Shown here: one piece after another, positions 1,062-53,195 of the stretch
Layout of the letters: every line of letters begins with the position of its first letter
How positions within the stretch are numbered: position 1 is the first letter of the stretch
Source: Promethearchaeota archaeon
GTDB taxonomy: Archaea; Asgardarchaeota; Lokiarchaeia; Sigyniarchaeales; SOKP01
DNA: 64,000 bases
Assembly: GCA_030606485.1 (NCBI GenBank)
Contig: JAUWGH010000005.1
Coordinates: 74,129 to 138,128, forward strand
Reading direction: 5' to 3'
Made by a program: the position numbers and the translations under genes
The notes under the pieces: model-generated
The model's input: the letters and a program-made list of their open reading frames with translations, nothing else
Database searches by the model: none
Told to the model about the DNA's origin: nothing

Positions 1062-2636
1062 TTATAAAAAAGAGCTTATTGTACTAATCCAAGTATTGAA
1101 TTGATCCAAAAGTTCCAATCGGTATTCAGTAGTTATTTTAAAGAACAACAAAGGAATCATCTTTTTCTCGAGATATTCATTCAAGTTAAATTCTTCGATG
1201 AGTCGAGACCAGACTGCCGTTTGAGTATGGTCTTCGGAAGTTCTTAAGCCTATTAACACACTTGTATTTTCATTTATCTTATCTAAACCATTAATTACTA
1301 AATTTCGCCATTCTAAATCAATAGATCTTTTATTTCTTGCATCAAATATAAATAAAACTCCATCTGAGTCTACAATTTCTCCAATATGATTGATATAATT
1401 TTTAATAATAACTTTATCATTAAATAAATAGATTTTTTCTAATTCTTCATTTTTAACTATACTAATTTCGCCCAAATCTCGAAATTCAGTAAACAATTGT
1501 AAAGCAGGATTCCAGTATTTATTTAAACCAATAAATGATAAAATTAATTTTCCTTTTACATTAATTATTTTATTAATTTCTGAAATTAGATTTGCTTTTA
1601 CAATATTCTCCTCGTCGAGTTGTGATTTTACTATATAGTGATAGGAGATTAAAGAGAACGCATCTTCGACATTTTCCCCTGTTTTTGCACTAGTTTCTAT
1701 ATAAGAAGCTTTTAACTTATTTGCTAGTGAAACACCTTCTTGATAAGATATTTTTCTTTCCTTACTTAAATCGGTTTTATTCCCCACAACAACAACCGGA
1801 ATATCTTTACTAATAAAACCTTTTAATTCATCGTACCAATTTTCAAGATTCTCAAAAGAAGATACATTTGTTAAATCGAATACTAAAAATGCTGAATGAG
1901 CTCCTTGATAATAAGTCTTTCTAACTCTTCGAAAGAATTTTTGGGCTCCAATATCCCAGATCATTAAATTTATTGCTGTATTTAGAAATTTATAGTTATG
2001 TGTCAAAATATTTAAACCAATTGTCGCACGGTAATCGGTTGAAAATCTGTTTTCAACAAATCTCATTACGATTGATGTCTTACCAACCGCGTGGTCACCA
2101 ACAATAATAAATTTAAATTTATATTCTCCCCTGGCGAGTCTCATTTGATAAATTTGATTTTTCAACCTATCAAACTCTTGTCTTTCATCATATTCAAAAT
2201 TAGGAATATATGTTTGAATTCGATTAATATCATCTTCTGTTAATATTTGGGCACATTTTTCAGCTAAGAAATAGGCATATGGAGCAGTTTTATCAATTGA
2301 AGCGAGTGTATTTAATATAATGCTTACAGTAGCATTATCTTTCACAGATACAAATAGAATTCTGGAATCCTCTGTTTCAAAGCTCGCAGTTCCCCATTTT
2401 TTAAAGGAAAATTCATACCTAATTCTTTCTAGAATGGGGTTTACAAGAGAAGAAAGTACCGATATTGAATCTGTTTTTACTTCAAGAGAATCATCTAATG
2501 TTTTCTCTTTAAGAATGTTATCTAATTTCGCAGCAATTATCAACCCTTCATCGTCAGAAACAATTACCGCTTCAACATCAGGTACAACATCCATAAAATT
2601 TTTTAGCAAACTATTAAATAATTCTGATTTTGACAT
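1062..2636 (-). CDS. Roadblock/LC7 domain fused to Rab-like small GTPase and a degenerate second GTPase-like domain
   Basis: A 524-residue protein in three parts. Residues 1-115 look like a roadblock/LC7 (MglB-type) dimerisation domain. Residues 172-335 are a Ras/Rab-type GTPase with P-loop GDHAVGKTS (180-188), a switch I Thr (TIG), G3 WDIGAQ (227-232), G4 NKTD (286-289) and G5 ETSAK (314-318). Residues 360-524 have a GTPase-like strand/helix pattern (GVLFIFDARNKRS, then TSVLIGL) but no P-loop and no NKxD. There is no C-terminal Cys for prenylation. I chose the start at 2636 because GAGGA lies just upstream; an in-frame ATG at 2660 would add 8 residues. Roadblock domains bind Ras-like GTPases in Ragulator/Rag and MglA/MglB systems, so intramolecular control of the GTPase is plausible (inference). 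Confidence 0.85.
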   Translation of the reverse strand: MSKSELFNSLLKNFMDVVPDVEAVIVSDDEGLIIAAKLDNILKEKTLDDSLEVKTDSISVLSSLVNPILERIRYEFSFKKWGTASFETEDSRILFVSVKDNATVSIILNTLASIDKTAPYAYFLAEKCAQILTEDDINRIQTYIPNFEYDERQEFDRLKNQIYQMRLARGEYKFKFIIVGDHAVGKTSIVMRFVENRFSTDYRATIGLNILTHNYKFLNTAINLMIWDIGAQKFFRRVRKTYYQGAHSAFLVFDLTNVSSFENLENWYDELKGFISKDIPVVVVGNKTDLSKERKISYQEGVSLANKLKASYIETSAKTGENVEDAFSLISYHYIVKSQLDEENIVKANLISEINKIINVKGKLILSFIGLNKYWNPALQLFTEFRDLGEISIVKNEELEKIYLFNDKVIIKNYINHIGEIVDSDGVLFIFDARNKRSIDLEWRNLVINGLDKINENTSVLIGLRTSEDHTQTAVWSRLIEEFNLNEYLEKKMIPLLFFKITTEYRLELLDQFNTWISTISSFL

Positions 2637-2773
2637 AAGATCCTCAAAATGAAAATACAAAAAAATATTAATATATCTTTTGTATATTTTAATGAAAATA
2701 ATTAAGAAAAAAATAAATTTTTTAATATCTAATCACTCTTATAGCGTAGAAACTTTATTGAATTTGATACAAA

Positions 2774-3367
2774 ATGCCTACTTGTATAATTTGTCATGAA
2801 AATATTGAAATAGAAGAGAGTTCTAGCATAAAAAGCTATACTTGTCCAAACGGACATCAAGTTCATAGAAAATGTTTAGAAGATTGGTTAGTTCATTCCC
2901 AAGTATGCCCATTATGTGCTGAAAAATATGACTCAAATACAATTTCAGAATTTACAGAATATTTTGATAAAATAAAGGAACAAAAAGAGCAAGAAAAACA
3001 GATAAAAGCTGATATGGAACTTGAAAAAGTTATTAGTAATATTGCAGATGATATTATTCTTTTAGAAAAATTGGAACTTCCACGAAAATTAATCAAACAA
3101 AAGGAGTTTAAAAAGGCATTAGAAAAGTTATTTGCTTTGATAGATGATAACAGTCAAAATATGGATGTTTTATTTCTAATAGGAAAAACGTTTTATTTAG
3201 ATAAACAATATGCATTGGCTGTTAATCATTTAATGAAACTAATAAAAAAAGATTTTAAATATCCTCAAGGTTTTTATTATTTAGGAAAAACATATCAAGC
3301 CTTGGGTCTTAATGACAAAGCAAAATGGGCATTTGATCGAGTTCCATCTGAAGATTCAAAGTCCTAA
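2774..3367 (+). CDS. RING-H2 zinc finger protein with C-terminal TPR-like helices
   Basis: A 197-residue protein. Its N-terminus has a complete C3H2C3 RING-H2 ligand set: C4-x2-C7-x16-C24-x3-H28-x2-H31-x2-C34-x10-C45-x2-C48, with CPLC as the last pair. A charged, probably coiled-coil helix follows (about 60-90), then TPR-like repeats (about 105-190; FLIGKTFYLDKQYALAVNHL, FYYLGKTYQALGLNDKAKWA). RING-H2 domains usually recruit E2 enzymes in ubiquitin ligation, and Asgard archaea carry ubiquitin-like systems, so an E3-like role is the leading inference. No ubiquitin, E1 or E2 gene is in the window. It lies divergent from the roadblock-GTPase and 24 bases before thiDN. Confidence 0.85.
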   Translation: MPTCIICHENIEIEESSSIKSYTCPNGHQVHRKCLEDWLVHSQVCPLCAEKYDSNTISEFTEYFDKIKEQKEQEKQIKADMELEKVISNIADDIILLEKLELPRKLIKQKEFKKALEKLFALIDDNSQNMDVLFLIGKTFYLDKQYALAVNHLMKLIKKDFKYPQGFYYLGKTYQALGLNDKAKWAFDRVPSEDSKS

Positions 3368-3391
3368 TTTTAAAGCAAAAGTAGTATTTTC

Positions 3392-4804
3392 ATGGAAAAA
3401 ATATTTTGTTTAACAATTGCAGGAACCGACCCAAGCTGTGGTGCCGGAATTCAGGCTGATATTAGAACTTTTGAAAAATTTGAAGTCTATCCTTTTTCCG
3501 TTATTACTGCTGTTACATATCAAACGGCAGATTCATTTTCAGGGTATTTTCCGATTCCAATTGAGTCTTTAGAGGAACAATTAAAAATATTATTTGAAAA
3601 ATATCCCATAAAATATGCAAAAACTGGTATGATTCCAACAAAAGAATCTGTAAAAATTATCGCAGAATATTTAGATAAATATCAAGTACATTACGTTGTT
3701 GATCCAGTAACTGTTTCTAGCGTTGGAGTGAGACTAGCAGAAGAAGGTACTGAATCAGAGCTTAAAAAAACTCTCTTCCCAAATGCACAAATTATTACTC
3801 CTAATCTTAAAGAAGCAGAGTATTTCTCAGGTATTAATATTAAAACACAAGAATTTGATGATATTGAATTAATGAGAAAAGCAGCCTTAGAAATTTTATC
3901 TCTTATGACTAATGAGAAAATTGAGCATAAATCAAAGGCAGTTATTATTAAAGGGGGTCATCCTGAAAAAAACAAAATAGCTGACATAGCATTAATATCT
4001 GATTTTGAAAACAAGAAAAAAAAACAATATTTCTTAAAATTCTTAAAAGATCTAAAACCAATTGTACAAAATGTTCATGGCACTGGATGTGTTTTTTCAG
4101 CTGCTTTAACAGCTGCATTAGCCATTAAAAAGGATTTATATTTTGCAATCCAAAATGCAGAAGAATTTTTTGATGAGAATTTTGAAAATATCACGAAAAT
4201 TAACGATAGAACATATATTCTTACATTGAATTATTCACCAGAAAAAAAAGCAGTTTTAAATCAAGTAAAAGAAATTTATAATTTTATTTCAAGTTCAAAA
4301 AAATTCTCAAGATTAATTCCAGAAGTTAGAACAAATATCTCTGTATCTTTACCTAATGCACAATCGAAAATTGACGTTGCTGCGATTGAAGGGCGAATTA
4401 GTATCATTAATGGGTATCCTAAAGCCATAGGAAAAATAAAATTTGGTGTATCTGATCATACAGCAAGATTGATATTAACCGCTAAAAAATTTGACAATTC
4501 ACTAAACATTGTAATTAATATGAAATATGTTCCGGATTTAATACAAAAATTAGAAAACGACTCATTCTTTAAGATTGCGGAAATAGACAGAAGTAAACAA
4601 CCTAAAAATATAAGCTTAAAAGAGGAATCAACAATGCAGTGGATAATAAAAAAAGTTTTTGAACAACATGGAACAATTCCAGATATTATATGGGATAAAG
4701 GTGCAACTGGTAAAGAGCCAATCATGAGAGTTTTTGCAAAAGACCCAGATGAAATGATTATGAAAATTGAAAAAATGTTAAATTATTTAGAAAAATCTAA
4801 TTGA
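3392..4804 (+). CDS. thiDN: Bifunctional hydroxymethylpyrimidine (phosphate) kinase / thiamine-phosphate synthase ThiDN
   Basis: A 470-residue fusion. Residues 1-265 are ThiD, the ribokinase-fold kinase that phosphorylates HMP and HMP-P: the N-terminal motif is TIAGTDPSCGAGIQADI, the substrate region AVTYQT, and the ATP/anion-hole motif HGTGCVFSAALTAALA. Residues 300-470 are ThiN, the archaeal thiamine-phosphate synthase domain (VRTNISVSLPNA, AIEGRISIINGYPKAIG, PDIIWDKGATGKEPIMRVF). Together with ThiC at 9949-11262 it provides the pyrimidine branch and the coupling step of thiamine synthesis. It follows the RING gene by 24 bases on the same strand and may be co-transcribed. Length and domain order are typical for archaeal ThiDN. 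Confidence 0.95.
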   Translation: MEKIFCLTIAGTDPSCGAGIQADIRTFEKFEVYPFSVITAVTYQTADSFSGYFPIPIESLEEQLKILFEKYPIKYAKTGMIPTKESVKIIAEYLDKYQVHYVVDPVTVSSVGVRLAEEGTESELKKTLFPNAQIITPNLKEAEYFSGINIKTQEFDDIELMRKAALEILSLMTNEKIEHKSKAVIIKGGHPEKNKIADIALISDFENKKKKQYFLKFLKDLKPIVQNVHGTGCVFSAALTAALAIKKDLYFAIQNAEEFFDENFENITKINDRTYILTLNYSPEKKAVLNQVKEIYNFISSSKKFSRLIPEVRTNISVSLPNAQSKIDVAAIEGRISIINGYPKAIGKIKFGVSDHTARLILTAKKFDNSLNIVINMKYVPDLIQKLENDSFFKIAEIDRSKQPKNISLKEESTMQWIIKKVFEQHGTIPDIIWDKGATGKEPIMRVFAKDPDEMIMKIEKMLNYLEKSN

Positions 4805-4941
4805 ACATGTTCGTTAATCGTTTTAAATTGTATTTTCTTATAAAAAATAATCAAAATTTTGAAATTTGCGGTTCAATCTTAATAATATGAACAATATAGA
4901 TTTATTTTAAGAATTAAATTAATAATTGCTAGGGATAATCT

Positions 4942-5814
4942 TTGGTATATAAACTGGGAATATTCTATGGAACCGATTCAGACACAGAGATGTTAACTCA
5001 AAAATTTGTAGGTAATTTGATTAACGATGACAAATTTTGTGAATCTTGCGAGGAAATGGAAGTAAAAATAAAATGTGATCACTGTCGAGAACATTTGAAA
5101 AGCTATGCTGATTCAATTTACTTTTATGAACAAATCGGCGAAAATCTTCCTGAATTTGTTGAAGAACCACTGGATTTTTTTCCTAAAAATCTTCCTGAAG
5201 TGGATTTCCTTTTAGTTGTGGGAATTCATCCAGACCTATTAACTGGACTTCCGGAATATTTAAAAGATCAAAATATAAAGGCAGTTATTATTCCAATCGA
5301 AGATCCAAAATGGGTGTCTCCAGGACTTCAAAAACAAGTTTTAGAAGAATTTGAAAAATTCGGAATTCAAGCAGCATTTCCAAAACCATTTTGTTCCTTG
5401 AGTAAAGAAGTAAATGAACTAAATAGACCCGGTTTTAATGTAACCCAAGAAAGTTCTAATATTGATGAATTTATTGATTATTTTAAGATTGGAGAGCCGA
5501 TTGTATTTTTTTTAATAAGTAAAGATGGAAAAACAATTGAAGATGCACACGTAATACAATCCGCTCCATGCGGTTCTACTTATTATATTGTCCAACAATT
5601 AAAATCAAAAGAAATTAATGATAAAGAGCTTTCCCTAAATGAACGTATTAGTAAAGCCCATCACTCATATCCTTGTAATGCCTCTATGGATCAAGATAAT
5701 ATATTAAAGGATACAATCCTTCATATAGGTGGTATATTAGTTAGAAATGCCGTTAGAAGAGTATTAAATCTTAAGGAAGATGAGGGATTTAAACTTTCTT
5801 ACGTTATCGTTTAA
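4942..5814 (+). CDS. DUF166 family protein
   Basis: A 290-residue protein recognised as DUF166, an archaeal family sometimes annotated as thymidylate-synthase-like; its function is not established. Cysteines cluster near the N-terminus (CESCEE, then CDHC) and at residues 213 and 251 (SAPCGST, SYPCNAS), which suggests a metal or cluster site. The central part contains VDFLLVVGIHPDLL and AVIIPIEDPKWVSPG. The start is TTG at 4942, favoured by an AGGG site at 4931-4934; the first ATG is internal. It is flanked by about 130-base AT-rich gaps, so it is probably a single-gene unit. Confidence 0.8.
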   Translation: MVYKLGIFYGTDSDTEMLTQKFVGNLINDDKFCESCEEMEVKIKCDHCREHLKSYADSIYFYEQIGENLPEFVEEPLDFFPKNLPEVDFLLVVGIHPDLLTGLPEYLKDQNIKAVIIPIEDPKWVSPGLQKQVLEEFEKFGIQAAFPKPFCSLSKEVNELNRPGFNVTQESSNIDEFIDYFKIGEPIVFFLISKDGKTIEDAHVIQSAPCGSTYYIVQQLKSKEINDKELSLNERISKAHHSYPCNASMDQDNILKDTILHIGGILVRNAVRRVLNLKEDEGFKLSYVIV

Positions 5815-32136: not shown

Positions 32137-32476
32137 TGTAATTAATTAGAATATTTTTATCTTTTTTATTTATAGTTATTTCTTTTGCCTTGGATTTCTA
32201 TGTAGATATTTCCCTTCTTTTTAAGTTTATTAATAAGATTTATTTATTGAAATTTTCTATTGGTATTTTATCAGTATTTATCTTAAATCTTATGATATAT
32301 TCTATTTTTTATTTTTAATGACCCCTCTCTCTCTATAGATAATTGTTCACTTTAAATGTAATAATCACCCAGATTTGTAAATAAATAAAAATGCTTTATT
32401 TTGAAGAAGACTGAGGAAAAATTAAAAATTTGTCGAGGGGTTAAATAATAAATTTCAGTGAAAATTCTTTAATTAG
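32137..32476. other. Divergent intergenic region before the PolB2 operon
   Basis: About 340 AT-rich bases between the broken gene and the RadA-like gene. It contains a short CT-repeat stretch around 32325-32337 and should carry the promoter of the PolB2 operon. I see no unambiguous TATA box or operator. Confidence 0.4.
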
Positions 32477-33226
32477 ATGGAGTTGCTTTCAGGCTACGCA
32501 TATCACAAAGAAAACAGCAAATATCCTTTAATTCCGAGTGGGGATTCTAAACTAGATGAATTATTACAAGGGGGATTTCACAAAGAATTAATATATTTAC
32601 TATATGGCTCCAAAAAAATCACAAACGATATTTTGCATTCGACGGCGGTAAGTTTTCAAAAAAGATTTCTTGATGACGGTCTCGGCGGGAGAATCGCCTA
32701 CATCGATGCAACAAATAAATTTAGCCCCTATAAAATAAGCACTCTGGCCTTATCAATGCGATTAAGTCCTTCACTAGTGTTGGGCAATATTCTGATCTCT
32801 CGGGCATTCACATGGCCTCAAATGGTCGAAATATTAGAGAACAAGTTATTAAAGATTGATGATATAAGAATGGTTCTGGTTTCTGGAATAACCAAGCTAT
32901 TTGGGAATTATGAACAAAGTACATTTGAAGACTTATCAAGGGCTATAAATGGCATAAAGAAAGTCGCACAAAAAACGAAATCATTAGTTATTATAACCGC
33001 ACCACTTCACGAAAATTCTTATGTTCGAGTAAAGGGGGGTAATATACTCTCTCACTTCGCAAATGTATTAGTTTTAATTAACGATGAGGATCGCTTCACT
33101 GAGTATCGACTAATCCAACATCCATACTTGCCTAATAAAAAGGTTGTCAGATGGAAAGCCCGCAAGCAAAAAGTAGATAGATCTAAAACCTTAAAAAATA
33201 CGACATTAGATTTTTGGTTTTCCTAA
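32477..33226 (+). CDS. RadA/RadB-like RecA-fold protein with lost Walker motifs
   Basis: A 249-residue relative of archaeal RadA/RadB. SGDSKLDELLQGGFHKELIY is the start of the RecA core as in RadB. However, the Walker A position (GPPGSGKT in active homologues) reads YGSKKITND, and the Walker B region reads MVLVSGITKLF without the acidic residue. It is therefore probably unable to bind or hydrolyse ATP and may act as a structural or loading factor. It is the first gene of an operon with the short helical protein (33-base gap) and the altered polymerase. The same association is known for PolB2 (Dpo2) genes of other archaea, as I recall. Confidence 0.82.
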   Translation: MELLSGYAYHKENSKYPLIPSGDSKLDELLQGGFHKELIYLLYGSKKITNDILHSTAVSFQKRFLDDGLGGRIAYIDATNKFSPYKISTLALSMRLSPSLVLGNILISRAFTWPQMVEILENKLLKIDDIRMVLVSGITKLFGNYEQSTFEDLSRAINGIKKVAQKTKSLVIITAPLHENSYVRVKGGNILSHFANVLVLINDEDRFTEYRLIQHPYLPNKKVVRWKARKQKVDRSKTLKNTTLDFWFS

Positions 33227-33247
33227 AACCAAGCTAAAATAAAAATT

Positions 33248-33254
33248 GAGGTGA
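33248..33254 (+). promoter_or_regulatory. Shine-Dalgarno site for the 85-residue gene (TTG start)
   Basis: GAGGTGA lies 5 bases before TTG 33260. It fixes a TTG start for the short helical protein of the PolB2 operon. Confidence 0.7.
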
Positions 33255-33259
33255 AATAA

Positions 33260-33517
33260 TTGGGTAGAACAGTTCCGTCTTTCCGTCCAGCGCTTGAAAT
33301 GGAAATCAAGAGCTGGAAAGATTTCAAAAGAGCTCTAAGACCTGAAGAGAGGAAATTTTTCGATCAAGTAATGGATCACGCTCGAATTCACGCTGATGCT
33401 GGAAGCATGGCAGCTAGACTTGTGTTATCCGAATTCCTCTTTTTCTCAGTAGCACTTGAACAAGAGAAAAGAATTGAGGAACTAGAAAAGAGAATAAGCG
33501 AATTGGAAAAAAAGTAA
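33260..33517 (+). CDS. Conserved short helical protein of the PolB2 operon
   Basis: An 85-residue protein: MGRTVPSFRPALEMEI, then FKRALRPEERKFFDQVMDHA and a C-terminal heptad-like coiled coil (about 65-85, EKRIEELEKRISELEKK). It is probably all helical. Similar short proteins with the MGRT/MGKT start and RALR...FD motifs are encoded beside PolB2 or free-standing in other archaea (recalled, not searched). The polymerase ATG follows its stop codon directly, so the two are translationally coupled; an accessory subunit of the polymerase is the obvious inference. Confidence 0.8.
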   Translation: MGRTVPSFRPALEMEIKSWKDFKRALRPEERKFFDQVMDHARIHADAGSMAARLVLSEFLFFSVALEQEKRIEELEKRISELEKK

Positions 33518-35911
33518 ATGACTAAGATAAAGAACTTCTACGGATGGATATTGGACGTCACCACATATGCAAGTGGGATTATTTTATGGGTCAAAATAAA
33601 AAAAGAAAACCAAACAGTTCAGATTAAATCTGAATTTCAGCCAGAATTTTTCGCAGTTCCAAAAAAAGGGCGATTTGGAAGCGATTTTCCAAGGCTGAAG
33701 CAGATCCTCAAATCCCACCCAAATATTGTCAGAGCAAGACTTTGTAGTAAGTATGTCTCGATTGACGATTGCGAAAAAAGGATGATTTTTGGGGTGTCAG
33801 TAAAAAAGCCTTCTGTATTCAAATCTACAATAAAAGATATCGAAAAACTTGATTATTTCACGTTATATAATACTGACATTCCAATTGCTCAAATGTATTT
33901 CTACGTGAATAGTCTCTTTCCAATGGCTTTCTGTTGCTTTTCAGTGAGTTTGGGTGAAAATAATGAAATGCATTTGCTCTCTTATGAGTTAAAGGATAAC
34001 AACGAAGACTTGTTTTATGAGACGCCTCCCTTGAGGGCGATTTGGTTGGAGATCAAAGTCCAGCAGAAGGGTTTGAGACCACAATTTAATGAGCCGATGG
34101 CATATGCGGAGATAGGAATTGTCGAGAATGAAAGAAAGGCAGACATGCCCAGAGCCGATTCTCCGATAAAGAGAACCATACTTATTGATAATGGTGATGA
34201 GGAAGAAAATTTGTTGGAGATAGTTCGAACTATTGAAAGGATTGATCCGGATATTATTCTTACAAAAAGGGGTGATGAATTTGCAATGCCTTATTTAGTT
34301 GCTCGAGCTTCTGCAAATCGAATTACAAGAAGATTTTATCTATCTCGCACCAAGACCCCCCTCAAGAGCGGAATCTTCAAGTTAAGTGGTGAAGACCATT
34401 TTTTTTCCTACGGGATCATATATCGTCGTTCGCAAACCCAGTGTTATTTAACTGGCCGATTTCATTTGGACTCTTCAGCCTACGGAAGCCTTCATTTCAT
34501 CGATGGTAATATTCCAGGGGTCATTGAAGTTGCGCGAGTGTCTCGAGTTCCAATACAACGACTTACCCGAGTTACAATTGGTGGCGCCCTACAATCCATA
34601 CAATTCTATAATGCGTATCAGTCTGATATTCTTATTCCACCTTTAAAAAGTAATGCAGAAGACTTCAAAACAGCTCTCGATCTAATTTTAGCAGATAGGG
34701 GCGGACATATTTTTGAGCCGAAGATCGGAGTGTTTAATAATGTTGCTGAACTAGATTTCGCTTCAATGTACCCCTCATTAATGAGTACATATAATATCTC
34801 ACCCGAAACCCTCAATTGTAAATGTTGCAAAGATGATCCTTCAGCAATTCAAGTTCCGGGATTGAACTATCATATCTGTAAGAAACGACGCGGTATTGTT
34901 TCAAAATCAATTGAAATACCTTTGAGAAAAAGATTAGTATACAAACAAATTGCGAAAGAGACTGGAAATATTAAGTATAAATATATGCAGAAAGCCCTAA
35001 AATGGATACTCGTCGTTTCATTTGGATATTTAGGGTTCAAGAATTCACGATTTGGCCGAATAGAGGCGCATCAAACTGTTTGTGCGTATTCTCGTGAGTT
35101 TTTATTACAATCGGCAGAAATTGCTCGTGAATATGGATATAAAATAATTCACGGTATTGTAGACTCCTTATATATAGAAAACAAAAAAAACACTTCAAAT
35201 GAGCAATTTAGGAAAGATTGCGAGGAAATTTGCAAAAGAATAGAAGAAGCAACGAAAATTCCAATTAATATTGAAGGAATATATAATTTCATTGTATTCA
35301 TGCCCTCTCGTGCGAATCCAAAAATACCTACACTCAATCATTATTGGGGAGTAAGAGTCGATGGGACAACAAAGCTGAGAGGAATTGATATTAGACGCAG
35401 AGATACACCAAAGATCGTGAAAGAGGCACAGAAGGCAATGATTAATGTCTTTATGAATGTGAAAACTAAACAACAATTTTTGTCTAAGATCCCTGAAGCA
35501 AAAAGTGTTTTATATTATTATTTAGATAAAATTGATAGTGGGAATGTAACGGCTGAAGAGCTAAGCGTCACAATAAGAGTTTCTCGAAAACCTTCCCAAT
35601 ATAAAGTAAATTCATATCAAGCGGTTGCTGCCAACCAAAAGGAGAAAGCAGGGGTGCCAGTGTCTGCGGGTCAAAAAGTAAAATTTATCATTACAAACGC
35701 TGAAGCTGATCCAAGTTCAGCATATAAGAAAGTAATCCTTTCGGAACTGTACAACCCAAAAAAACATCAATATGACAAGAAAAAATATAGAGAACTCCTA
35801 ACTCGTGCATTTAAAAATATCATCCCCTTTGAATTGCCAGATTTGGAAAATTCAATAAAATCGAGAAATGAAGAAAGAAAACTTCAAGAAACTCTTCTGA
35901 ATTTTGTCTAA
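33518..35911 (+). CDS. Family-B DNA polymerase of the PolB2 (Dpo2) type with altered active sites
   Basis: A 797-residue family-B polymerase. Motif A LDFASMYPS (about 409-417) is intact. Motif B is KALKWILVVSFGYLGF where NGSYG is usual. Motif C is HGIVDSLYI (about 544-552): the first Asp of DTD is lost and the second, metal-binding Asp is kept. The exonuclease region is damaged: AIWLEIKV replaces the DIE motif and LTKRGDEFAMPYL replaces NxxxFD. Two Cys pairs follow motif A (CKCC, then CKKRRG). This fits archaeal PolB2, implicated in damage tolerance in Sulfolobales. It is likely proofreading-deficient, with residual polymerase activity possible. Confidence 0.9.
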   Translation: MTKIKNFYGWILDVTTYASGIILWVKIKKENQTVQIKSEFQPEFFAVPKKGRFGSDFPRLKQILKSHPNIVRARLCSKYVSIDDCEKRMIFGVSVKKPSVFKSTIKDIEKLDYFTLYNTDIPIAQMYFYVNSLFPMAFCCFSVSLGENNEMHLLSYELKDNNEDLFYETPPLRAIWLEIKVQQKGLRPQFNEPMAYAEIGIVENERKADMPRADSPIKRTILIDNGDEEENLLEIVRTIERIDPDIILTKRGDEFAMPYLVARASANRITRRFYLSRTKTPLKSGIFKLSGEDHFFSYGIIYRRSQTQCYLTGRFHLDSSAYGSLHFIDGNIPGVIEVARVSRVPIQRLTRVTIGGALQSIQFYNAYQSDILIPPLKSNAEDFKTALDLILADRGGHIFEPKIGVFNNVAELDFASMYPSLMSTYNISPETLNCKCCKDDPSAIQVPGLNYHICKKRRGIVSKSIEIPLRKRLVYKQIAKETGNIKYKYMQKALKWILVVSFGYLGFKNSRFGRIEAHQTVCAYSREFLLQSAEIAREYGYKIIHGIVDSLYIENKKNTSNEQFRKDCEEICKRIEEATKIPINIEGIYNFIVFMPSRANPKIPTLNHYWGVRVDGTTKLRGIDIRRRDTPKIVKEAQKAMINVFMNVKTKQQFLSKIPEAKSVLYYYLDKIDSGNVTAEELSVTIRVSRKPSQYKVNSYQAVAANQKEKAGVPVSAGQKVKFIITNAEADPSSAYKKVILSELYNPKKHQYDKKKYRELLTRAFKNIIPFELPDLENSIKSRNEERKLQETLLNFV

Positions 35912-50255: not shown

Positions 50256-53195
50256 TTAAAAAAATGAATCCATTTTTTTTATTCCTCTAATTTCTTCATA
50301 AGATATGCCCAAAGCATCAAGGAGTTGTTCAACTGCATTTTTTAATAAATTTCTATACGCTTTTCCATCAATATCTTCGAGTTTGGCTAATTCTACTGGT
50401 TTAACACCTATACTATCTCTTGTTTTAACAAATGAAACTATATCTCCCTTTTGTAGTTCCTTCTTTGTAACATTTTGCATGATTCGTGCAGCTTTTACGT
50501 GTTGAGGTGTAGTTTTAATATATTTATCTAAAGGTCTTTGTAATTCTAAAGAGATTACATAATCATCTTTTGTAAATCCGTCCTTTTTTCCAATCGCATT
50601 TTGATCTTTTCTGATAATATCAATAATTTTTTGACGTGATTTATCAAATTCTTCGTTATTAGTAATATCTCTTAATATTTCAGTTAATTGACCAAAAGTT
50701 TTCTTGATAAAATTAGGAGTATTACTCTTTTTAGCCGTCATACCTTTAATATCAATAGTTTTTGTACCTGCATAAACTCCTATATAATTCTTTTTTCGTT
50801 TTGATAGTGCTAAAAATTGATAAGTTTTTTCTTCTTCTAAATCTAAATCCAATTCATCTTTACTCCAATTGGAAATTTCATTTAATTGGCTATTTGTTGG
50901 GCTTTTTAAGAAAATTGAGTCAGTATCGCCGTAAAGAACCTGAATTCCGAGGCTTTCCGCTTTCTTTACCGCAGATTGAATCGAATATCGACCAATACCT
51001 GTTGTGCTTTCAGCAACTGGTAAACAAAATAAGGGGAAATTGGGGCTTCCAAATACACCGTATGAACCATTAATAAACACTTTTAGTGCTTGTTGTAAAA
51101 CCTGGAATATATTTCTCTGTTTTTGGGGTATTAATTTATCTGATGATTTTGGTTTAAAATATTTAACCCTAACATCTCTGAAAAATCCAGTTACATAAGA
51201 AAATATGCCGGTTCTTTTATTGCAAACGTGATAAGAAATTCCTTTTATAAAATTTTCTTTACAAGTTTCATGGGGACATTGAACTGTTTCGTAAGATAAG
51301 TTATATTCTTTTATTATCGAAGGATAAAGGCTAGCAAAATCCAATACCACCACATTATAATGGACACCTGGGACGGGATCTATAACTATAGCACCTTGAA
51401 ATCCTTTCCCTTCGATTATTGACTGCGATCTCCCTCCCTTTTTTAAATCACTTATTTCAGATCTTTTTGGGATTAGATAATTTTTTTCCCTATGTTCAAA
51501 ATAAAAGATATTTTTTATCCACGCAGAAATTTGGTGTCGAATTAAATCATGAAGGGGCATTTTTGTCATTCTTAAAAGTATCGTAATAAGGTTCATCACT
51601 ACTGCATCATTGAACCTTGTTAGTTCCAATGTAATTTCAGAATCTTTATAATTATAATAAATAAGTCGATTATATGTCATCTCATGGATTTCTTCATCAT
51701 GTTTAAATTTTCCTTCACCTAATAAAGCCGTTGTTATCATATCTAATGAATTCCTTTCATATGCCCCTCCAAAAGCATAACCTTTAATACTCCTATTTGA
51801 AAAAAAGCTATATAGATCAATATGTAATCCTTTCTTTAAATTGCATTCTGCTTTCCGCATAGGTCCAAAACCGGCTCTAACAAGAATAGGATTTAATTGT
51901 TCAGAAATTTTAAGCCTTTTTGCTCTATGGAATAAGTAATTAAGATCAAAATTATCACCATTAAATGTTATAACTATGGGGTATTTCCACATGATTCGAA
52001 AAGTTTCAATCAATAAATCCTTTTCATCCTCAAAAAATACAATTTCTAAATCATCTGGCATTTCCTCTATTTTTTCTCCCATTGAGAAACCTTCTCTTTC
52101 TAATACATAGACCTTTTTTAATCCATCTATCCCAACAAAAGATATACTAATTATTTTGTTTTTAGATTTACTTGGATCTGGTATTCTCTTCTCATCAGGA
52201 TTCATATTTATTTCGATATCAATCGCAACCCTTTTTAAATCAATAATAGGCGTATTAAAAATCTCAAGATACCTATTAGCAAAATCTTTTAGTGCTTTAC
52301 TCTCATCTTTAAAGATATCTGAAAGTTCTTTCGCTCTTTCAATTGTCTCCTTTGTACTACCGCTAAAATCTTTTTTAATTAATTTATTATTTTTTATTTG
52401 ATAAATCAATCCTGGTATTAATCCTTCATCATAAATATAATTTTGATGATATCTAATATCAGCTTCCCAAGCATTTTCTTTTTTTAGAATATCCCTTATA
52501 GCTTTTCCTCGAGCACCGATACTTGTGGGTGTTTTTCCGTAGACTTTTGCCATTTCAATTTCCTTATCAAATAATAAATCATATCGCTTAATTGTCTCAT
52601 TTCTGACAAATCCGTCGAAATTCGTTAGATCAATATCATTATCAAGATCAGTTATGCTTCTTTTACTTAAACAATAAGGTGTATGACCAGTTGTATCAAT
52701 CCAAATTTTGATCTCTTTTGATTCTAAATCATAAAATTTACAGTATGCCTTATTTTGCCCTCCATCGTAATCAACATCTAGTAAAACCCCATTTTCCAAA
52801 TTCGTGGTGATCTTCCCATTTTCAATAAAAAACCTAACATAAGCAGCTTCTCCAGATTCTCTTTCCTTCTTTTTGAATTGAGTGTTTTTTTCAAGTAATC
52901 CAAAATTAGTGGATTTAGGTTTATAATATAAATTTTTAGGAATCTCTCCTAATGTTTCTTTTTTTGACACTTTTTCCCCAGATTCTATAACATTAATCTC
53001 TTTTTTTGCAATAGTTTTTAGCGGTTCCTTTATCCCTAGAATTTCCCTTTCGATTTGCTCTTTTGTAACCATTTGCGGCTGTTCTTCTTCAATAATTTCT
53101 TTTTTAGGTTTTTTTTTTTCAATAAATGAAGAAAGAGATACTTGTTCACTCACTTTCTTCGTTTCCTTTTTACTTTTCTTTTTGGGTTGAGCCAA
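50256..53195 (-). CDS. polB: Family-B DNA polymerase (replicative PolB type) with intact exonuclease
   Basis: A 979-residue polymerase. Exo I DIEI (about 324), Exo II TFNGDNFDLNYL (about 410) and Exo III YNYKDSEIT are intact. Motif A DFASLYPSI (about 617), motif B QQALKVFINGSYGVFG and motif C YGDTDSIFL (about 755) are canonical. The N-terminus is a Lys/Glu-rich tail of about 100 residues containing QVSLSSFI (18-25), and the C-terminus ends KKMDSFF; both resemble PCNA-interacting peptides. This is the active polymerase of the window, in contrast to 33518-35911. It starts with TTG at 53195. Confidence 0.94.
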   Translation of the reverse strand: MAQPKKKSKKETKKVSEQVSLSSFIEKKKPKKEIIEEEQPQMVTKEQIEREILGIKEPLKTIAKKEINVIESGEKVSKKETLGEIPKNLYYKPKSTNFGLLEKNTQFKKKERESGEAAYVRFFIENGKITTNLENGVLLDVDYDGGQNKAYCKFYDLESKEIKIWIDTTGHTPYCLSKRSITDLDNDIDLTNFDGFVRNETIKRYDLLFDKEIEMAKVYGKTPTSIGARGKAIRDILKKENAWEADIRYHQNYIYDEGLIPGLIYQIKNNKLIKKDFSGSTKETIERAKELSDIFKDESKALKDFANRYLEIFNTPIIDLKRVAIDIEINMNPDEKRIPDPSKSKNKIISISFVGIDGLKKVYVLEREGFSMGEKIEEMPDDLEIVFFEDEKDLLIETFRIMWKYPIVITFNGDNFDLNYLFHRAKRLKISEQLNPILVRAGFGPMRKAECNLKKGLHIDLYSFFSNRSIKGYAFGGAYERNSLDMITTALLGEGKFKHDEEIHEMTYNRLIYYNYKDSEITLELTRFNDAVVMNLITILLRMTKMPLHDLIRHQISAWIKNIFYFEHREKNYLIPKRSEISDLKKGGRSQSIIEGKGFQGAIVIDPVPGVHYNVVVLDFASLYPSIIKEYNLSYETVQCPHETCKENFIKGISYHVCNKRTGIFSYVTGFFRDVRVKYFKPKSSDKLIPQKQRNIFQVLQQALKVFINGSYGVFGSPNFPLFCLPVAESTTGIGRYSIQSAVKKAESLGIQVLYGDTDSIFLKSPTNSQLNEISNWSKDELDLDLEEEKTYQFLALSKRKKNYIGVYAGTKTIDIKGMTAKKSNTPNFIKKTFGQLTEILRDITNNEEFDKSRQKIIDIIRKDQNAIGKKDGFTKDDYVISLELQRPLDKYIKTTPQHVKAARIMQNVTKKELQKGDIVSFVKTRDSIGVKPVELAKLEDIDGKAYRNLLKNAVEQLLDALGISYEEIRGIKKMDSFF

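What the first reader, a model, noticed from the sequence alone, without database searches (positions are those of the whole stretch)
32477..35911. PolB2 (Dpo2)-type operon: inactive RadA-like protein, short helical protein, altered polymerase
Three coupled genes. The RadA-like protein lacks Walker A and B. The 85-residue protein has a coiled coil and is joined to the polymerase by stop/start adjacency. The polymerase keeps both metal-binding Asp but has changed motif B, lost the first Asp of DTD and lost exonuclease residues. In Sulfolobales Dpo2 is linked to damage response. The conserved trio suggests a dedicated translesion or repair machine in Asgard archaea, separate from the replicative PolB at 50256-53195.
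Basis: partly seen in the sequence, partly recalled or inferred. Interest (0 to 1): 0.8.

Follow-up and report, generated by a model that had tools for sequence, protein, structure and literature searches.

The report
PolB2 mutasome operon in a lokiarchaeon
These three genes are a lokiarchaeal copy of a known archaeal machine thought to help DNA copying continue past damage; the new details are that both large subunits end in sliding-clamp docking tags and that, in relatives where the genes have moved apart, both parts keep the same promoter element.

Summary
At 32477-35911 there are three same-strand genes: a RadA-like protein without Walker A/B (iRadA), an 85-aa helical protein starting MGRT (PPB2) and an altered B-family polymerase (PolB2/Dpo2 type: exonuclease residues and the first Asp of motif C lost, both catalytic Asp kept). 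This is the iRadA-PPB2-PolB2 'mutasome' operon described in 2014 and modelled as a heteropentamer in 2025 (PMC4104785, PMC11791011); its Sulfolobus polymerase is a damage-induced translesion extender (PMC8764526, PMC7390963). Asgard PolB2 was already known. So: new member of a known kind.

New from this survey: (1) The three genes are conserved, but the contiguous trio is not. Most Lokiarchaeia have iRadA 0.1-7 kb from PPB2-PolB2; thorarchaeia keep it unlinked. (2) Where the units are split, a shared promoter element (TYAGAAAATT) precedes both. An exact 14-mer occurs 40 times in 61 genomes, 37 of them just upstream of iRadA. The window has a diverged form, 40 nt before iRadA. (3) In Lokiarchaeia nearly all iRadA and PolB2 both end in PCNA-binding-type motifs, against the published 'rarely both'. 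Activity, complex formation and damage induction were not tested.

The parts
32422..32436 (+). diverged form (TTAAAAATTTGTCGA) of the promoter element found upstream of iRadA in Lokiarchaeia; TATA-like TTAAATAA at 32441-32448
   Evidence: exact match of YWRAAAATTTGTCGR, one of only two in the 3.75-Mb genome; 39 of 40 Loki-type iRadA upstream regions carry AAATTGTCGG or AAATTTGTCG
32477..33226 (+). iRadA: RadA/Rad51 core without Walker A/B and without the N-terminal helical domain
   Evidence: Pfam Rad51 3e-15; alignment with RadA structures; AlphaFold2 model pLDDT 87, Foldseek to RAD51 at 7.6e-18; no GxxxxGKT
33197..33220 (+). iRadA C-terminal PCNA-binding-type motif NTTLDFWF (residues 241-248)
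   Evidence: conserved as NxTLDxWF across Lokiarchaeia
33260..33517 (+). PPB2 (arCOG07300-type small helical protein), TTG start, N-terminal MGRT arm, C-terminal coiled coil
   Evidence: iterated profile search finds it next to PolB2 in most loci, with GRT invariant or nearly so; MGRT motif defined in PMC11791011
33518..35911 (+). PolB2 / Dpo2-type B-family polymerase
   Evidence: Pfam DNA_pol_B 9.5e-33, exo domain 2.9e-11; AlphaFold2 pLDDT 89.6, Foldseek to archaeal PolB at 1.1e-43
34748..34777 (+). PolB2 motif A ELDFASMYPS, catalytic D413 kept
35000..35029 (+). PolB2 motif B KWILVVSFGY (canonical Kx3NSxYG altered)
35150..35173 (+). PolB2 motif C HGIVDSLY: first Asp replaced by Ile, D549 kept
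   Evidence: same HxxxD pattern as Sulfolobus Dpo2
35885..35908 (+). PolB2 C-terminal PCNA-binding-type motif QETLLNFV (residues 790-797)
   Evidence: Q..[LIM]..[FYW] in 45 of 46 lokiarchaeal PolB2 with both proteins complete, 0 of 409 background ORFs

Best explanation
The operon encodes a PolB2 mutasome. PolB2 is a B-family polymerase without proofreading that extends mismatched or lesion-terminated primers after another polymerase has inserted opposite the damage. iRadA is a recombinase core that no longer binds ATP and serves as a structural subunit, holding PolB2 in the way one RadA subunit holds the next. A PPB2 trimer braces the pair with its MGRT arm near the DNA. In this lineage both iRadA and PolB2 carry C-terminal clamp motifs, so the complex probably docks on the (single-type, homotrimeric) PCNA through two contacts. 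Shown here: the genes, their motifs, family membership and the C-terminal motifs. Inferred from relatives: complex formation and the extender role. Not shown: activity or damage induction in this organism.
For: Family and motif matches. Published operon and complex with identical hallmarks: PolB2 HxxxD, MGRT of PPB2, iRadA without ATPase site. Confident monomer models with RAD51 and archaeal PolB folds. Dual C-terminal clamp motifs in 42 of 46 lokiarchaeal loci by strict regex; the four misses are three loci (L120, L123, L124) whose iRadA motif lies slightly further inside and L122, whose PolB2 ends in KSGLDKYFI without the Gln. A single PCNA gene and one Y-family polymerase (possible inserter) in the genome. 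Both units share a promoter element when separated, as expected for subunits of one machine.
Against: No complex prediction or biochemical test was possible. The PolB2 active site lacks the first Asp of motif C and the Asn of motif B, so activity rests on Sulfolobus results. The clamp motif of iRadA has Asn rather than Gln at position 1. In thorarchaeia iRadA is not next to PPB2-PolB2, which weakens the argument from adjacency.
Confidence: 0.85

Rival explanations
1. PolB2 is catalytically dead and the complex acts as a regulator or scaffold at stalled forks or at origins (the 2008-2014 view).
For: Loss of motif-C first Asp, motif-B Asn and exonuclease residues; linkage with orc1/cdc6 homologues in euryarchaea as reported in PMC4104785.
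Against: Sulfolobus Dpo2 with the same HxxxD motif C is a robust polymerase and an extender. Motif A Asp and motif C second Asp are invariant in the 28 aligned sequences. A homing intein sits exactly in motif B of one relative, a kind of site inteins normally occupy in functional polymerases (the last point is general knowledge).
Confidence: 0.08
2. A polymerase complex for another purpose, such as a mobile element's replication or defence, rather than damage tolerance.
For: The trio also occurs in a Leptospira phage, and PolB relatives lie on haloarchaeal plasmids.
Against: Near-universal chromosomal presence in the lokiarchaeal family and no obvious mobile-element genes beside it in the window (neighbours judged by inspection, not by family search).
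Confidence: 0.05
3. The genes are drifting remnants without a current function.
For: Exonuclease and ATPase sites are lost; sibling genomes carry a duplicated 3' fragment of polB2.
Against: Long open frames, 96-99% identity between congeners for PolB2 and iRadA, conserved motifs from Lokiarchaeia to Bathyarchaeota, and a maintained promoter element.
Confidence: 0.02

Closest known systems
PolB2 mutasome iRadA-PPB2-PolB2 (arCOG07300 operon), archaea and bacteria (PMC4104785, PMC11791011)
   Same: Gene set, order iRadA-PPB2-PolB2, MGRT arm, inactive ATPase site, motif C change
   Different: Both iRadA and PolB2 carry clamp motifs in Lokiarchaeia (reported as rare elsewhere); iRadA is often a separate unit with a shared promoter element
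Sulfolobus islandicus / Saccharolobus solfataricus Dpo2
   Same: PolB2 with HxxxD motif C and no exonuclease; reported damage-inducible, mismatch extender
   Different: Sulfolobus enzymes are reported as the smallest known PolB2; the window protein is longer (797 aa) and keeps more of the remnant exonuclease domain. Direct alignment to Dpo2 was not made here
Eukaryotic Pol zeta
   Same: B-family extender without proofreading, works with Y-family inserters
   Different: Different subunits and an intact catalytic triad (general knowledge); resemblance in role only
Bacterial Pol V (UmuD'2C-RecA)
   Same: Polymerase plus RecA-family subunit plus small homo-oligomer
   Different: Y-family polymerase and active RecA; analogy, not homology

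Membership tests
PolB2 polymerase | B-family fold with replaced first Asp of motif C (HxxxD) and degraded exonuclease motifs | tested here: met
   HGIVDS, ExoI IWLEI, ExoII ILTKRGDEFA; fold
PolB2 mutasome | adjacent PPB2 with conserved N-terminal MGRT | tested here: met
   33260-33517 MGRTVPSFRPALE
PolB2 mutasome | iRadA: RadA core without N-terminal domain and without Walker A/B | tested here: met
PolB2 mutasome | C-terminal sliding-clamp motif in iRadA or PolB2 (found in part of the family) | tested here: met
   motif present in both proteins of the window; 42 of 46 lokiarchaeal loci have both by strict regex. Binding not tested
PolB2 mutasome | PPB2 trimer and 1:1:3 heteropentamer | not testable with these tools
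   no complex prediction available
PolB2 mutasome | DNA-damage-induced expression | not testable with these tools
   only a conserved promoter element was found
PolB2 / extender polymerase | mismatch and lesion-terminus extension activity | not testable with these tools
   biochemistry known only for Sulfolobus
Replicative PolB1/PolB3 | DTD in motif C and intact exonuclease motifs | tested here: not met
RadA/RadB recombinase | Walker A GxxxxGK[ST] | tested here: not met
   absent in iRadA, present in the four other paralogues of the genome
Pol V mutasome | Y-family UmuC polymerase | tested here: not met
   Pfam DNA_pol_B

The most novel reading that the evidence does not exclude
Lokiarchaeia have a dedicated, probably damage-responsive promoter box (TYAGAAAATT(GTCGG), a fixed distance before a TATA-like box) that controls only the two separated transcription units of the PolB2 mutasome; its core AGAAAAT carries, on the opposite strand, the ANTTTC hexamer bound by the Sulfolobales damage regulator Orc1-2. 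This could be the first recognised damage-response element in Asgard archaea, together with a two-point PCNA docking of the mutasome.
Probability: 0.4. Interest if true: 0.62.

Novelty: new member of a known kind. Interest (0 to 1): 0.42.

Why it matters
PolB2 mutasomes are the archaeal counterpart of mutagenic translesion complexes, and how Asgard archaea, the closest archaeal relatives of eukaryotes, handle damage is little studied. The dual clamp motifs and the shared promoter element give two cheap, specific tests: peptide binding to lokiarchaeal PCNA, and a search for the factor that binds TYAGAAAATT.

Tried and rejected
An alignment of 17 diverse PolB2 was too divergent for the genome-contig scan, so a closer set was used. 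A third strong hit of the promoter model in two genomes of one genus (G027, G048) lies inside a 170-aa ORF on the opposite strand and was set aside as probable chance. Among hits with E below 1e-3 no further target gene recurred across genera; one more single hit (G080:C460, E 4.6e-5, L250) had no clear gene assignment. The model R1 does not rank the window's own promoter among the listed hits, so the window's form is described as diverged. The Asp-Lys/Arg interface motif of Sulfolobus PolB2 could not be mapped safely without its sequence. A palindrome TTTCAGTGAAA at 32453-32463 was looked at first and dropped: the congener L071 reads TCTTAGTGAAA there and no other relative shows it.

Full report
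Observation. The three genes are present as described. Pfam, NCBIfam and PDB searches put the first with Rad51/RadA and the third with B-family polymerases; Pfam and NCBIfam find nothing convincing for the second. Alignment with RadA structures shows that Walker A, Walker B and the catalytic Glu are gone, while the four other RadA-family proteins of the genome keep Walker A. The polymerase keeps the motif-A Asp and the second Asp of motif C, but has HGIVDS for YxDTDS, KWILVVSFGY for Kx3NSxYG, and no exonuclease carboxylates. The other PolB in the window is an intact PolB1-type enzyme.

What it is. The set, order and hallmarks are those of the PolB2 mutasome. Makarova et al. 2014 described the operon of PolB2, inactivated RadA and arCOG07300. 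Timinskas et al. 2025 renamed the small protein PPB2, described its MGRT arm and modelled a PolB2-iRadA-PPB2(3) pentamer. Sulfolobus Dpo2 with the same HxxxD motif C is a real polymerase specialised in mismatch and lesion-terminus extension, and an Asgard PolB2 was included in that paper's alignment. AlphaFold2 models of iRadA (pLDDT 87) and PolB2 (89.6) match RAD51 and archaeal PolB structures.

Host and distribution. The nearest named relative is a Lokiarchaeia genome (96% identity, L071). PolB2 is found in nearly all genomes of the family and in many other families of the phylum, though part of the phylum-wide tally is cross-hits to replicative PolB. PPB2 adjoins PolB2 in almost all loci, with GRT conserved even in very divergent copies. 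iRadA behaves differently. It is adjacent in the window's genus, Sigynarchaeota, the Prometheoarchaeum-like group and several Bathyarchaeota. In most Lokiarchaeia it lies 0.1 to 7 kb away, the intervening genes mostly on the other strand. In seven thorarchaeial-family genomes examined an iRadA without Walker A lies at a site unlinked to polB2. So the three genes are all retained although the operon breaks up.

Clamp motifs. In Lokiarchaeia PolB2 ends in QxxLxxF (typically QKDLSCFI) and iRadA ends in NxTLDxWF. Of 46 loci with both proteins complete, 42 have both by a strict regex. Three of the other four (L120, L123, L124) have the iRadA motif a little further inside; in L122 PolB2 ends in KSGLDKYFI, without the Gln. 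Among 409 other ORFs in the same loci none has Q..[LIM]..[FYW] in its last 16 residues. The 2025 study reports that both proteins rarely carry the motif together; its main text names no Asgard lineage. The genome has one PCNA gene, so a homotrimer could offer several pockets. Binding itself is inferred.

Promoter element. Motif discovery on regions upstream of iRadA and, separately, of PPB2 in Lokiarchaeia found the same core, TYAGAAAATT, with 17.3 and 9.9 log-units per sequence against about 2 in shuffled controls. In both sets the commonest distance from the core to a TATA-like sequence is 15 nt. In 891 kb of these loci the 9-mer YAGAAAATT lies upstream of iRadA 36 times, of PPB2 35 times and of any other gene 13 times. 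Across 61 family genomes the exact 14-mer YAGAAAATTGTCGG occurs 40 times (control, reversed pattern: 2); 37 of these are directly upstream of iRadA. Thirty of 53 non-compact PPB2 upstream regions contain YAGAAAATT against 0.3 expected from shuffling. The loci share ancestry, so these counts are not independent events. A sequence model searched over 26 genomes again returns mainly these two promoters. The window, whose operon is compact, has one diverged copy 40 nt before iRadA (32422-32436), where the spacing to the TATA-like box is shorter. This is a conserved element; that it responds to damage is a hypothesis. The core contains ANTTTC on the opposite strand, the hexamer bound by Orc1-2 in Sulfolobales, but such a short match is common in AT-rich DNA and is only a lead.

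Mechanism. Most likely the complex is recruited to a stalled primer by PCNA contacts of PolB2 and iRadA; a Y-family polymerase (one in this genome) may insert opposite the lesion, and PolB2 extends, with iRadA and PPB2 stabilising it on DNA. The complex and the extender role are carried over from published models and Sulfolobus experiments.

Verdict. A well-identified member of a known system, with one docking and one regulatory feature not found in the papers searched, which cover open-licence papers only.

Noticed in passing
L278 (KF114879.1 55114-62309), about 1701-4957: Leptospira phage LE1 carries the whole mutasome trio: a PPB2 homologue (profile E 1e-16), a weak iRadA match and PolB2 (1e-194), annotated as hypothetical proteins and DNA polymerase B. 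PHROGs 30126 and 26583 match the window's PPB2.
   Followed up: partly
L071:10401-16185; L072:2482-2661: Congeners of the window have a copy (201 bp, 87.6% identity in L071) of the 3' end of polB2 about 0.7 kb downstream of the gene; in L071 it lies in a 5.8-kb segment with ABC transporter genes that the window lacks, and in L072 the copy has a stop. It resembles an integration or duplication scar.
   Followed up: partly
L053-L055, L067, L068: PolB2 with an intact DTD motif C together with PPB2 and iRadA in two other families of the same phylum (motif read in L054 and L067); the 2025 paper reported intact DxD only in TACK archaea.
   Followed up: partly
L056:2917-6708 (-): A PolB2 with a LAGLIDADG-type intein of about 530 aa inserted in motif B, just before CFGYLGF.
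   Followed up: yes
L032 / L132: polB2 of one lokiarchaeal genome is broken into two overlapping ORFs (463 and 362 aa), by frameshift or assembly error.
   Followed up: no
L031, L033: Similar trios in genomes placed in different families (G067 and G005) may reflect contamination or transfer; G067 is listed with 12% contamination.
   Followed up: no
L243, L244 near position 1501: Strong matches of the promoter model (E about 2e-7) inside a 170-aa ORF, upstream of a dihydrouridine-synthase-like gene, in two genomes of one genus.
   Followed up: partly
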